64,000 nucleotides of DNA. Origin: Streptomyces alboflavus. GTDB taxonomy: Bacteria; Actinomycetota; Actinomycetes; Streptomycetales; Streptomycetaceae. How positions within the stretch are numbered: the stretch's first letter is position 1; each line of letters opens with the position of its first letter. Of the stretch, positions 37,891 through 39,779 are shown in pieces. The notes beneath the pieces were generated by a model, which did not search any database, was not told the origin of the DNA, and saw only the letters and a list, made by a program, of their open reading frames with translations. The position numbers and the translations under genes are program-made. The stretch covers positions 72,838-136,837 of the forward strand of contig NZ_JNXT01000014.1 of NCBI RefSeq assembly GCF_000716675.1, given 5' to 3'.

Positions 37891-37916
37891 ACATCGATGT
37901 ATCGACACATCGATGT
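37891..37916. promoter_or_regulatory. Tandem palindromes upstream of the MFS exporter
   Basis: ACATCGATGT occurs at 37891-37900 and again at 37907-37916, separated by ATCGAC. Centre-to-centre distance is 16 bases. It is typical of a dimeric repressor binding twice. Confidence 0.6.
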
Positions 37917-38071
37917 GGGCGCGCTGAGTGCGCGCCTCAGTCCACCAGGGGGCGGGGTCCGCGGTCTGGCAGGTAACCGACCCCGTGGTCGGCCCCGGCA
38001 CGTACCCGTCGGCGCTGCCCGGCGCCCCGTACCCGACGGAAAACGACAGGCCCGGCCGCGCACCGCGCTGC

Positions 38072-38077
38072 TAGCAT
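38072..38077 (+). promoter_or_regulatory. -10 box of the methionyl-tRNA synthetase leader
   Basis: TAGCAT, then 6 bases, then ATG (38084). The same TAGCAT(N6)ATG geometry occurs at 57831-57845. It implies a leaderless transcript starting at the leader peptide ATG. No clear -35 box. Confidence 0.6.
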
Positions 38078-38083
38078 CCCCGC

Positions 38084-38137
38084 ATGATCACGCCAGAGTT
38101 CCGCGTCGCCATGATGCCCCGCCGACGGGGCTGCTGA
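38084..38137 (+). CDS. Leader peptide with tandem Met codons
   Basis: A 17-residue reading frame, MITPEFRVAMMPRRRGC, starts directly at the probable transcription start. Two adjacent ATG codons (38111-38116) are placed just before a set of mutually exclusive hairpins in front of a methionyl-tRNA synthetase gene. A ribosome short of Met-tRNA would stall there. The peptide itself is unlikely to have another role. Confidence 0.6.
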   Translation: MITPEFRVAMMPRRRGC

Positions 38138-38179
38138 CACCGGACACGAGCGTGCCCGAGGCCCCGAGACGGGGCCTCG
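38117..38179 (+). promoter_or_regulatory. Candidate transcription attenuator
   Basis: Segment 1 CCCCG (38117-38121) pairs with segment 2 CGGGG (38126-38130). Segment 2 can instead pair with segment 3 GCCCCG (38161-38166). Segments 3 and 4 form a perfect 10-bp terminator-like stem (38157-38166 with 38170-38179, loop AGA). Stalling on the Met codons would cover segment 1 and favour 2:3, letting transcription go on. No T-tract follows. Confidence 0.55.
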
Positions 38180-38246
38180 ACCTGTGACACGGCACGGAGC
38201 CCCGCCTCTCCCGTCCGGAGATCGCACGGAGATCCTGGAGGCTCCC

Positions 38247-39779
38247 ATGACCACACCCCGTACGACCTACGTCACGACGACCATTCCGTACGTCAACGCC
38301 CGCCCCCACCTGGGCTTCGCCCTCGAACTCGTGCAGGCCGACGTGCTGGCCCGGCACCGCCGCCACCGGGGGGACAGGGTCCGCTTCCTCACCGGCACGG
38401 ACGACAACTCCCTGAAGAACGTCCTCGCCGCCGAGGCCGAGGGCGTCCCCGTGCAGGACTTCGTCGACCGCAACGCGGACGCGTTCGCCGCGCTGCGCGA
38501 CCCGCTCGCCCTGTCGTTCGACGACTTCATCCGGACCAGCCGGGACCCGCGCCACCGGGTCGGCGTGGAGCGGCTCTGGCGGCGGTGCGCAGCCTCCGGC
38601 GACCTGTACCGCAAGCACTACGAAGGCCTGTACTGCGTCGGCTGCGAGCAGTTCTACACCCCGGCCGAACTCGTCGGCGGCCGCTGCGCCGAGCACGGCA
38701 CGGCGCCCCGGCCCGTCGCCGAGGAGAACTGGTTCTTCCGCCTGTCGCGGTACGCGGACCAGCTGCACGCACTGATCACGTCCGGCCGTCTGCGCATCGA
38801 GCCCGCCGTCCGCCGCAACGAGGTCCTCGCCCTGATCGAGGGCGGTCTGCACGACTTCTCGGTGTCGCGCTCGCAGACCCGTGCCCGCGGCTGGGGCATC
38901 CCCGTGCCCGACGACCCGGACCAGGTCGTGTACGTGTGGTGGGACGCGCTCGGCAACTATGTGACGAGCCTCGGGTACGGCACCGACGACCCCGCGTACG
39001 ACCGGTGGTGGACCGGTGCGACGCGCCGCAGCCACCTGCTCGGGAAGGGCGTCGTCCGCTTCCACGCCGTGTACTGGCCCGCGATGCTCCTGTCGGCCGG
39101 TCTGCCGCTGCCCACCGACATCCTCGTGCACGACTACCTCACCGTCGACGGCCGCAAGATCAGCAAGTCCGGTGGCACGACCGTCGATCCGGCCCAGCTG
39201 GCGGCGGAGTTCGGCACGGACGCGGTCCGCTGGTGGCTGCTGCGCGAGGTGCCCCGGGTCGGGGACGCCGACTTCACCCGGGAGCGGCTGGTGGCGCGCG
39301 CGAACGCCGACCTCGCGGGCGGGCTCGGGAACCTCGTCAACCGGGTCGTGACGATGGCGCACCGCTTCCGCGACGGCCGGGTGCCGGAGCGGAGCACGGC
39401 CGAGGGCGCCCCGGCCGAGGGCACGGAACGCCTGGCGGCCGTCTGTCGTGAGGTGCGGGGCCAGGTCGACGACGCCCTCGCGGACTTCGACTTCCGGCGG
39501 GCGACGGCCGCCGTGTGGCGGATCGTCCAGGAGGCCGACCGCTGTGTCGACGGTACGCGGCCGTGGGAGCTGGCCAGGGCCGAGCGCGCGGGCGACCGGG
39601 CTGCGGGCGACCGGCTCGACGAGGTCCTCGCGGCGCTGGTCGGGGCGTGTCGCACGGTCGCGGACCAGCTCGGCCCGTTCCTGCCGGAGTCCGCGGCGCG
39701 GGTGGCGGCGCAGTGCGCGCCGACGGACGGCCGCCTCCCGGCGGCGCGCCCGCTGTTCGCGCGGGTGGGCGAGGCGTAG
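38247..39779 (+). CDS. metG: Methionyl-tRNA synthetase
   Basis: 510 residues. Class I signatures are HLGF (21-24, the HIGH motif) and KISKS (304-308, the KMSKS motif). One zinc knuckle is visible, C130 and C133 with a second C/H pair in GGRCAEHG. The C-terminal anticodon-binding helices end the protein; there is no tRNA-binding appendix. The sequence looks like the bacterial-type short form, which may be a second synthetase beside the usual housekeeping one. GGAG lies 9 bases before the ATG. Expression is probably controlled by the leader at 38084-38179. Confidence 0.93.
   Translation: MTTPRTTYVTTTIPYVNARPHLGFALELVQADVLARHRRHRGDRVRFLTGTDDNSLKNVLAAEAEGVPVQDFVDRNADAFAALRDPLALSFDDFIRTSRDPRHRVGVERLWRRCAASGDLYRKHYEGLYCVGCEQFYTPAELVGGRCAEHGTAPRPVAEENWFFRLSRYADQLHALITSGRLRIEPAVRRNEVLALIEGGLHDFSVSRSQTRARGWGIPVPDDPDQVVYVWWDALGNYVTSLGYGTDDPAYDRWWTGATRRSHLLGKGVVRFHAVYWPAMLLSAGLPLPTDILVHDYLTVDGRKISKSGGTTVDPAQLAAEFGTDAVRWWLLREVPRVGDADFTRERLVARANADLAGGLGNLVNRVVTMAHRFRDGRVPERSTAEGAPAEGTERLAAVCREVRGQVDDALADFDFRRATAAVWRIVQEADRCVDGTRPWELARAERAGDRAAGDRLDEVLAALVGACRTVADQLGPFLPESAARVAAQCAPTDGRLPAARPLFARVGEA

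What the first reader, a model, noticed from the sequence alone, without database searches (positions are those of the whole stretch)
38084..38246. Methionyl-tRNA synthetase preceded by a Met-Met leader peptide and attenuator
A leaderless 17-codon frame (MITPEFRVAMMPRRRGC) places two ATG codons just before hairpin 1. Segment 2 of that hairpin can pair instead with segment 3 of a perfect 10-bp terminator-like stem. This is the classical four-segment attenuation layout, here for Met-tRNA. I know of no described Met leader of this kind in streptomycetes.
Basis: partly seen in the sequence, partly recalled or inferred. Interest (0 to 1): 0.8.

Follow-up and report, generated by a model that had tools for sequence, protein, structure and literature searches.

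The report
Methionine attenuator before methionyl-tRNA synthetase
A short RNA switch that appears to read how well the cell's methionine tRNAs are charged, by letting a ribosome pause on methionine codons, sits in front of a methionyl-tRNA synthetase gene in this Streptomyces and in many other bacteria, so that the enzyme would be made when charged methionine tRNA runs short.

Summary
The window has a -10 box, a leaderless 17-codon frame (MITPEFRVAMMPRRRGC), two Met codons abutting hairpin 1, and a perfect 10-bp terminator-like stem whose 5' arm can pair with segment 2. The gene behind it is a second (auxiliary) methionyl-tRNA synthetase. The layout is conserved: 107 of 123 loci examined have a Met-codon leader; 65 of 79 main-type leaders keep both Met codons, the other 14 one. 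A leaderless start in frame with them stands in 93 of 98 distinct leaders. Hairpin 1 and terminator covary; the antiterminator is conserved but nearly invariant. In 295 genomes of the genus the 12 strong model hits are the 12 with a close orthologue; 24 usable housekeeping MetRS loci lack ATGATG upstream. Six of seven rhizobial plasmid loci read carry a Met-Met-Met version, four with U-run terminators. In four Frankia-family genomes checked the leader-bearing MetRS is the only one over cut-off. I conclude: a Met-tRNA-responsive ribosome-mediated transcription attenuator, a new specificity of a known kind (compare trpRS1 of S. coelicolor). There are no expression data; why a spare MetRS is needed is open.

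The parts
38072..38077 (+). -10 box TAGCAT (TGC just upstream: extended -10); transcript start expected 6-7 nt downstream, at or next to the leader ATG
   Evidence: sequence; TAnnnT 6 or 7 nt before an in-frame start codon in 74 of 78 distinct main-type leaders and 19 of 20 distinct Frankia-type leaders
38084..38137 (+). leader peptide ORF MITPEFRVAMMPRRRGC, stop TGA 38135-38137
   Evidence: frame conserved
38111..38116 (+). tandem Met control codons ATG ATG
   Evidence: ATGATG in 65 of 79 main-type leaders, one Met codon kept in the other 14
38116..38131 (+). hairpin 1 (segments 1:2), GCCCCG-CCGA-CGGGGC
   Evidence: 82.4% of cells paired, 3 of 6 pairs with changes on both sides
38126..38166 (+). 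antiterminator (segments 2:3): 38126-38132 with 38160-38166, small inner helix within 38141-38158
   Evidence: predicted MFE of 38124-38169, -18.2 kcal/mol; 85.3% of cells paired, no covariation beyond shuffles
38157..38179 (+). terminator-like hairpin (segments 3:4), 10 perfect pairs, no U-run in the window
   Evidence: 86.6% paired, 5 of 10 pairs with changes on both sides; -22.0 kcal/mol; T-enriched tail across leaders
38237..38241 (+). Shine-Dalgarno GGAGG of metS2
   Evidence: by inspection
38247..39779 (+). auxiliary methionyl-tRNA synthetase gene (510 aa)
   Evidence: TIGR00398 411.9 bits over cut-off 336.35; second MetRS on contig C68, 40% identical; best PDB relatives are MetRS

Best explanation
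A Met-tRNA-responsive, ribosome-mediated transcription attenuator. RNA polymerase starts at or next to the leader ATG, so the leader mRNA is leaderless. With enough charged elongator Met-tRNA the ribosome passes the Met codons and reaches the stop, where it covers segment 2; segment 3 pairs with 4 and transcription ends before metS. With too little Met-tRNA the ribosome stalls on the Met codons and covers segment 1; segment 2 pairs with 3 (antiterminator) and metS is transcribed. Without leader translation hairpin 1 forms and termination is the default. In Streptomyces and most other hosts checked this makes an inducible spare MetRS; in the Frankia-family and Actinorugispora genomes checked it governs the only MetRS over cut-off. 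Shown: anatomy, frame, conservation, covariation of two helices, gene association. Inferred: stalling, termination, response to Met-tRNA, physiological role.
For: Anatomy. Met leaders in 107 of 123 loci, typed by eye. In-frame leaderless start: 74 of 78 against 3 and 1 in the other two frames, 19 of 20 in the Frankia type. Helices: 66 of 79 leaders against 20 of 2370 shuffles. Hairpin 1 plus terminator: 85.0% of cells paired, 37 cells changed on both sides, covariation 0.178 against 0.106, 0 of 500 shuffles as high, best of seven registers. Same logic with other letters: GGCCUU:GAGGCC or close variants in 14 of 24 Frankia-type rows, AGGAAGCGG:CCGCUUCCU in L074, GGAAGCGG:CCGCUUCC in L076. Rhizobial plasmids: Met-Met-Met leader in six of seven loci read, U-run terminator in four of the six. 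Gene association: the 12 strong model hits in 295 genomes of the genus are the 12 with MetRS at least 76% identical. Controls: no ATGATG upstream of 24 usable housekeeping MetRS loci and no model hit over 17.3 bits in them. A decayed leader with its Met codons lost in G181 (L168), a genome without a close MetRS orthologue. Masked folding gives the antiterminator before segment 4 is made and the terminator when segment 2 is covered.
Against: No transcript or reporter data. The window's terminator lacks a U-run; actinobacterial tails are only moderately T-rich (27.7% T against 16.1%, 75 of 78 tails). The antiterminator shows no covariation beyond shuffles, and in rhizobia it is only 5 bp. For hairpin 1 plus terminator two of five measures do not stand out from the shuffles (pairs with a change on both sides 8 against 6.7, 117 of 500 as high; further pair types 23 against 20.1, 55 of 500), and relatedness of the sequences inflates the others. 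At equilibrium the terminator beats the antiterminator even with segment 1 masked, so the switch must be kinetic. 16 of 123 loci lack a leader, 4 of them (L032, L037, L067, L079) inside the leader-bearing actinobacterial clade. 13 of 79 leaders failed my helix thresholds. In 10 of 24 Frankia-type rows my automatic search picked other helices. In 396 genomes of the phylum the model found no strong leader but the window's; how many of these hold the MetRS was not checked.
Confidence: 0.85

Rival explanations
1. Translational control: the same leader and Met codons act, but the switch exposes or hides the metS Shine-Dalgarno rather than ending transcription; a GGAGCC/GGCUCC-type helix before metS could sequester it.
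For: The minimum-energy fold of the whole leader pairs the Shine-Dalgarno region; an SD-complementary helix of 6-8 bp is present in the window and several relatives with compensating letters (GGAGCC/GGCTCC, GGAACC/GGTTCC). Most actinobacterial terminators here lack strong U-runs.
Against: Only 9 of 61 testable leaders beat 95% of shuffles for this helix, and the window is not one of them (0.105); stem 3:4 ends about 57 nt before the SD in the window; four of six rhizobial versions and both other alphaproteobacterial ones (L074, L076) have U-run terminators; T-enriched tails in Actinomycetota.
Confidence: 0.08
2. Nascent-peptide or antibiotic-dependent stalling: the leader peptide arrests the ribosome in response to a drug, as in erm-type leaders (recalled), rather than reading Met-tRNA charge.
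For: MMP and MMRP are recurring motifs and the gene is an auxiliary aminoacyl-tRNA synthetase in most hosts checked.
Against: The rest of the peptide varies and its C-terminus follows the hairpin letters; the stop codon lies inside or after hairpin 1 depending on the lineage; Frankia-type and alphaproteobacterial leaders share mainly Met codons before the hairpin.
Confidence: 0.04
3. Chance or purely structural conservation: ATGATG is conserved as part of the RNA stem, not as codons.
For: In the window the last G of the second ATG is in hairpin 1; in the Frankia type more of the Met codons lie in its 5' arm.
Against: In most main-type leaders at most that one base pairs; the start-to-Met distance varies by whole codons (4 to 12) and keeps the frame in 74 of 78; in other lineages the hairpin letters differ and Met codons stay.
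Confidence: 0.02

Closest known systems
trpRS1 attenuator of Streptomyces coelicolor (Vecchione & Sello 2010, J Bacteriol 192:3565; only the title seen, in a reference list; text not held; organism recalled)
   Same: auxiliary aminoacyl-tRNA synthetase gene under ribosome-mediated transcriptional attenuation
   Different: Trp, not Met; TrpRS1 is reported resistant to indolmycin (passage of PMC9437257), here no inhibitor is known
Candidate classical attenuators before trpS and leuS in Streptomyces (Seliverstov et al. 2005, PMC1262725, passages)
   Same: leader peptide, antiterminator and terminator before aminoacyl-tRNA synthetase genes in Actinobacteria
   Different: Trp and Leu; the paper states that no conserved RNA structure was observed before methionine operons
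metL before metNIQ in S. lividans TK24 (PMC8079986, passages)
   Same: leaderless leader peptide said to depend on methionine
   Different: other gene, other peptide (MSTTSDRTPATEATTTPGARCMCRRMCAF), no tandem Met, termination described as unclear; the same paper lists alaL, thrL, leuL2, trpL2 before synthetase genes
Second MetRS gene of Streptococcus pneumoniae subpopulations with altered inhibitor sensitivity (Gentry et al. 2003; only the title seen, in a reference list)
   Same: an auxiliary MetRS present in part of a group of strains
   Different: regulation not known to me to involve a leader peptide
pheST attenuator of gamma-proteobacteria (recalled; mentioned in PMC1262725)
   Same: synthetase gene controlled by leader translation
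   Different: Phe
T-box riboswitches of Firmicutes synthetase genes (recalled)
   Same: output: synthetase induced by uncharged cognate tRNA
   Different: T-box binds tRNA directly; here a translated leader; no Rfam match

Membership tests
Ribosome-mediated transcription attenuator | translatable short ORF upstream of the gene with a start signal | tested here: met
   (sequence evidence; translation itself not shown)
Ribosome-mediated transcription attenuator | codons of the regulated amino acid clustered just before the first hairpin and conserved | tested here: met
Ribosome-mediated transcription attenuator | mutually exclusive 1:2, 2:3, 3:4 pairings | tested here: met
   2:3 by conservation and lineage comparison only, without covariation in the main group
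Ribosome-mediated transcription attenuator | intrinsic terminator with U-tract | tested here: inconclusive
   perfect stem but no U-run in the window; T-enriched tails in relatives; U-runs in four of six rhizobial leaders and in L074, L076
Ribosome-mediated transcription attenuator | expression rises on shortage of the cognate aminoacyl-tRNA, lost on mutating the codons | not testable with these tools
   needs reporters
T-box riboswitch | match to the T-box covariance model | tested here: not met
   no Rfam match in the window at gathering score or in 37900-38400 at E up to 1
SAM or other Rfam riboswitch | Rfam match | tested here: not met
Antibiotic-resistant auxiliary synthetase | resists an inhibitor of the housekeeping enzyme | not testable with these tools
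   both enzymes keep cysteines of a CxxC...CxxH knuckle; no inhibitor known to me

The most novel reading that the evidence does not exclude
This is a mobile, self-sensing backup-MetRS cassette, found in Actinomycetota and on rhizobial plasmids (one typed conjugative), that answers an undiscovered natural inhibitor of MetRS; because Met is also the starting residue of a leaderless leader, the switch would respond to elongator Met-tRNA shortage only while initiator fMet-tRNA is still available, a band-pass that, as far as I know, no other attenuator needs.
Probability: 0.25. Interest if true: 0.8.

Novelty: new member of a known kind. Interest (0 to 1): 0.62.

Why it matters
Attenuators for several amino acids are known, but a methionine one before MetRS did not turn up in my nine searches of an open-access library. 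Methionine is the special case: the same synthetase charges the initiator tRNA that the leader itself needs. The conserved element offers a reporter of Met-tRNA charge, marks an inducible spare MetRS in antibiotic-producing genera and in rhizobia, and points to a stress not yet known (methionine limitation, a methionine analogue, or a MetRS inhibitor) that selected for it. It also adds a case where a synthetase has this control both as a spare copy and as the only copy.

Tried and rejected
T-box, SAM riboswitch or any Rfam family: no match. Leader used by other genes: the covariance model gave 12 strong hits in 295 genomes of the genus, in the 12 genomes with the close MetRS and next to it, and in 396 phylum genomes only the window (stricter filters may lose weak matches, and I did not check how many of them hold the MetRS). 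Of the weaker hits I read 9 of 35 in the genus list and 3 of 37 in the phylum list: one is a decayed leader (L168), the others look by eye like coding sequence or unrelated stems. Zinc-free spare enzyme: both MetRS keep the knuckle cysteines. A second, SD-hiding tier: only weak support. Spread in Alphaproteobacteria: in 289 genomes of the class only L076's own genome matched its enzyme at E 1e-130. The model R1 did not find the alphaproteobacterial or Anaerolineae leaders and found Frankia-type L043, L055 and L062 at the right place with 24.2, 17.8 and 13.1 bits, L058 not. Anaerolineae locus L070 has a Met-rich leader (MMSMVMRM) and a U-run terminator, but no convincing antiterminator; its membership is open although it is counted among the 107. 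Structure prediction and the large protein database search were not used.

Full report
What is there. The + strand of the window shows TAGCAT at 38072-38077, six bases, and an ATG at 38084 that opens MITPEFRVAMMPRRRGC with its stop at 38135-38137. Its tenth and eleventh codons, ATG ATG at 38111-38116, touch hairpin 1 (38116-38121 with 38126-38131). A second hairpin, 38157-38166 with 38170-38179, has ten perfect pairs. Segment 2 can pair with 38161-38166 instead. The gene begins at 38247 after a GGAGG and codes for 510 residues of methionyl-tRNA synthetase (TIGR00398, 411.9 bits against a cut-off of 336.35). The same genome has a second MetRS, 40% identical, on contig C68, so the window gene is an auxiliary copy.

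Is it more than chance. I scored the three helices after the Met codons in 79 leaders of the main type: 66 of 79 met preset criteria, against 20 of 2370 dinucleotide shuffles; for the window 0 of 5000 shuffles were as good in all three. Of 274 other ATGATG sites in the loci fetched by then 13 met the criteria, seven of them being leaders themselves (L055, L063 and L076 with two sites each, L091). The whole leader folds with z -2.19.

Conservation. With the window that is 123 loci, of which 5 pairs have identical upstream DNA. I find a Met leader in 107: 79 main type with the window, 24 Frankia type and 3 other (L070, L074, L076), and L091, whose leader was located by the model. The 16 without are L032, L037, L064, L067, L068, L069, L072, L075, L079-L084, L096, L097. 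Assignment to types was by eye. ATGATG stands in 65 of 79 main-type leaders; the other 14 keep one Met codon beside a Thr, Val, Ile, Ser or Leu codon.

Coding evidence. In 74 of 78 distinct main-type leaders a TAnnnT box lies 6 or 7 nt before an ATG (70) or GTG (4) that is in frame with the Met pair, against 3 and 1 leaders with such a start in the other two frames; the number of codons before the pair varies from 4 to 12; L034, L073, L077 and L113 have none. In the Frankia type it is 19 of 20 distinct leaders, 14 of them with GTG, L044 being the miss. This spacing is what a leaderless transcript needs.

Structure evidence. On the 56-sequence alignment A2 (chosen from the 79 to thin near-copies), hairpin 1 and the terminator together have 85.0% of cells paired (80.5% in shuffles), 37 cells changed on both sides (14.7) and a covariation score of 0.178 (0.106), 0 of 500 shuffles as high for each of the three, and every slid register does worse; but the number of pairs with a change on both sides (8 against 6.7, 117 of 500 as high) and of further pair types (23 against 20.1, 55 of 500) does not stand out. 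The antiterminator has 85.3% paired and is best in register by that measure and by covariation score, but not by cells or pairs with changes on both sides, and it has no excess over shuffles: its letters are nearly fixed, as expected if segment 2 must pair with both 1 and 3. Support for it comes from lineages with other letters: GGCCUU:GAGGCC or close variants in 14 of 24 Frankia-type rows (in the other 10 my search picked other helices), AGGAAGCGG:CCGCUUCCU in L074, GGAAGCGG:CCGCUUCC in L076.

Folding with a ribosome mask. RNA from 38124 to 38169, as when a stalled ribosome covers segment 1 and segment 4 is not yet made, folds into the antiterminator (-18.2 kcal/mol); with 38148-38185 free, as with a ribosome at the stop codon, the terminator forms (-22.0). 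With 38124-38185 free the terminator wins, so the choice must be made during transcription. T is enriched after the stem: 27.7% in 12 nt against 16.1% in the upstream regions, 75 of 78 tails found.

Gene association and controls. A covariance model of A2 searched in 295 genomes of the genus gives 44 genomes at E up to 0.01, of which 12 score 63 bits or more; these 12 are the genomes whose MetRS is at least 76% identical to the window's, while the two with 51-55% identical enzymes (G069, G023) have no hit. Next come 41.1 bits and lower; I read 9 of these 35, and 3 of the 37 weaker phylum hits. One, L168 in G181, is a decayed leader whose Met codons are gone; one search lists no close MetRS in that genome. 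In 396 genomes of the phylum only the window exceeds 32 bits. Upstream of 25 loci from the MetRS family search (housekeeping copies) there is no ATGATG within 400 nt; 24 are usable (L211 was misplaced), L190 with 215 nt only, and the model gives them at most 17.3 bits. The main-type model does find the Frankia leader L043 at its proper place (24.2 bits, E 0.0007).

Spare or only copy. Of 31 genomes checked with TIGR00398, the 12 leader-bearing genomes of the genus have two MetRS over the cut-off. All four f18 genomes checked (G331, G378, G409, G446; f18 holds records identical to named Frankia loci) and G462 (identical upstream DNA to Actinorugispora L058) have one, the leader-bearing one; in G378 a second match is under the cut-off. 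The other leader-bearing genomes of the class in that call have two. In one search the two alphaproteobacterial genomes have two, the Anaerolineae, Acidimicrobiales and Crossiella genomes one at E 1e-60; some are metagenome bins of unknown completeness.

Beyond Actinomycetota. A blastn search of plasmids found 18 records, among them a Streptomyces linear plasmid (L227) and an Embleya replicon (L228), both with the leader, and distant relatives on rhizobial plasmids. A tblastn search gave 9 Rhizobiaceae records. Of seven rhizobial loci fetched (L224, L225, L226, L230-L233; the records H17 and H24 not fetched), six have a Met-Met-Met leader such as MNRSLANATMMMPRS, hairpin 1 and a terminator stem; in four (L225, L226, L230, L231) a run of U follows at once; their antiterminator is 5 bp, GGCGG:CCGCC. 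The seventh, L233, lacks the start of the gene and has no leader. L226 lies on a plasmid typed conjugative. The quick tree of 127 proteins puts 102 rows in one actinobacterial clade (support 100), 98 with a leader, and six alphaproteobacterial rows in another (97), with leaderless lineages between; one origin with losses and two origins are both possible.

Literature. I searched nine times in an open-access library and found no Met attenuator before a MetRS gene. Passages seen: PMC1262725 reports candidate attenuators for trpS and leuS in Streptomyces and none for methionine operons; PMC8079986 reports alaL, thrL, leuL2, trpL2 before synthetase genes and metL before metNIQ in S. lividans; PMC2965389 gives no MetRS case in the passages shown. 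The trpRS1 paper is known to me from memory and from a reference list; its text is not held. Subscription papers are mostly outside the library.

Judgement. The mechanism is of a known kind; methionine specificity, the tie to a mostly auxiliary MetRS, and presence in two phyla (Actinomycetota and Pseudomonadota) are new as far as I could see. What stress calls for the spare enzyme is not shown.

Noticed in passing
L168 1501-1584 (G181): Decayed copy of the leader (38.7 bits) in a genome of the genus for which one search lists no close MetRS orthologue; Met codons lost. A likely trace of gene loss.
   Followed up: partly
L224, L225, L226, L230, L231, L232: Rhizobium, Sinorhizobium and Agrobacterium plasmids carry a MetRS gene with a Met-Met-Met leader; one plasmid is typed conjugative.
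   Followed up: partly
L233 (Rhizobium sp. T1473 plasmid): A relative of the plasmid MetRS whose N-terminal part and leader are missing.
   Followed up: no
window 38196-38245: A GGAGCC/GGCTCC helix could hide the metS Shine-Dalgarno; similar helices with compensating letters in some relatives, not significant overall.
   Followed up: partly
L096 (G069): A genome of the genus whose only MetRS over the cut-off belongs to a leaderless sister clade (55% identical to the window's), with a weaker second match; possible replacement of the housekeeping enzyme.
   Followed up: no
L070 2772-3000: Anaerolineae MetRS with a Met-rich leader (MSIASFITTFFMMSMVMRMAGLPRF...) and a U-run terminator; perhaps an independent Met attenuator.
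   Followed up: partly
L064 2740-3000: Thermomicrobiales MetRS has a GGTGGTACCACG stretch like that of a T-box (recalled) before a stem, but no Rfam match at gathering score.
   Followed up: no
window 38038-38043 and relatives: A GGAAAA-like A-rich element recurs about 30 nt before the -10 box in several leaders, perhaps an upstream promoter element (by eye).
   Followed up: no
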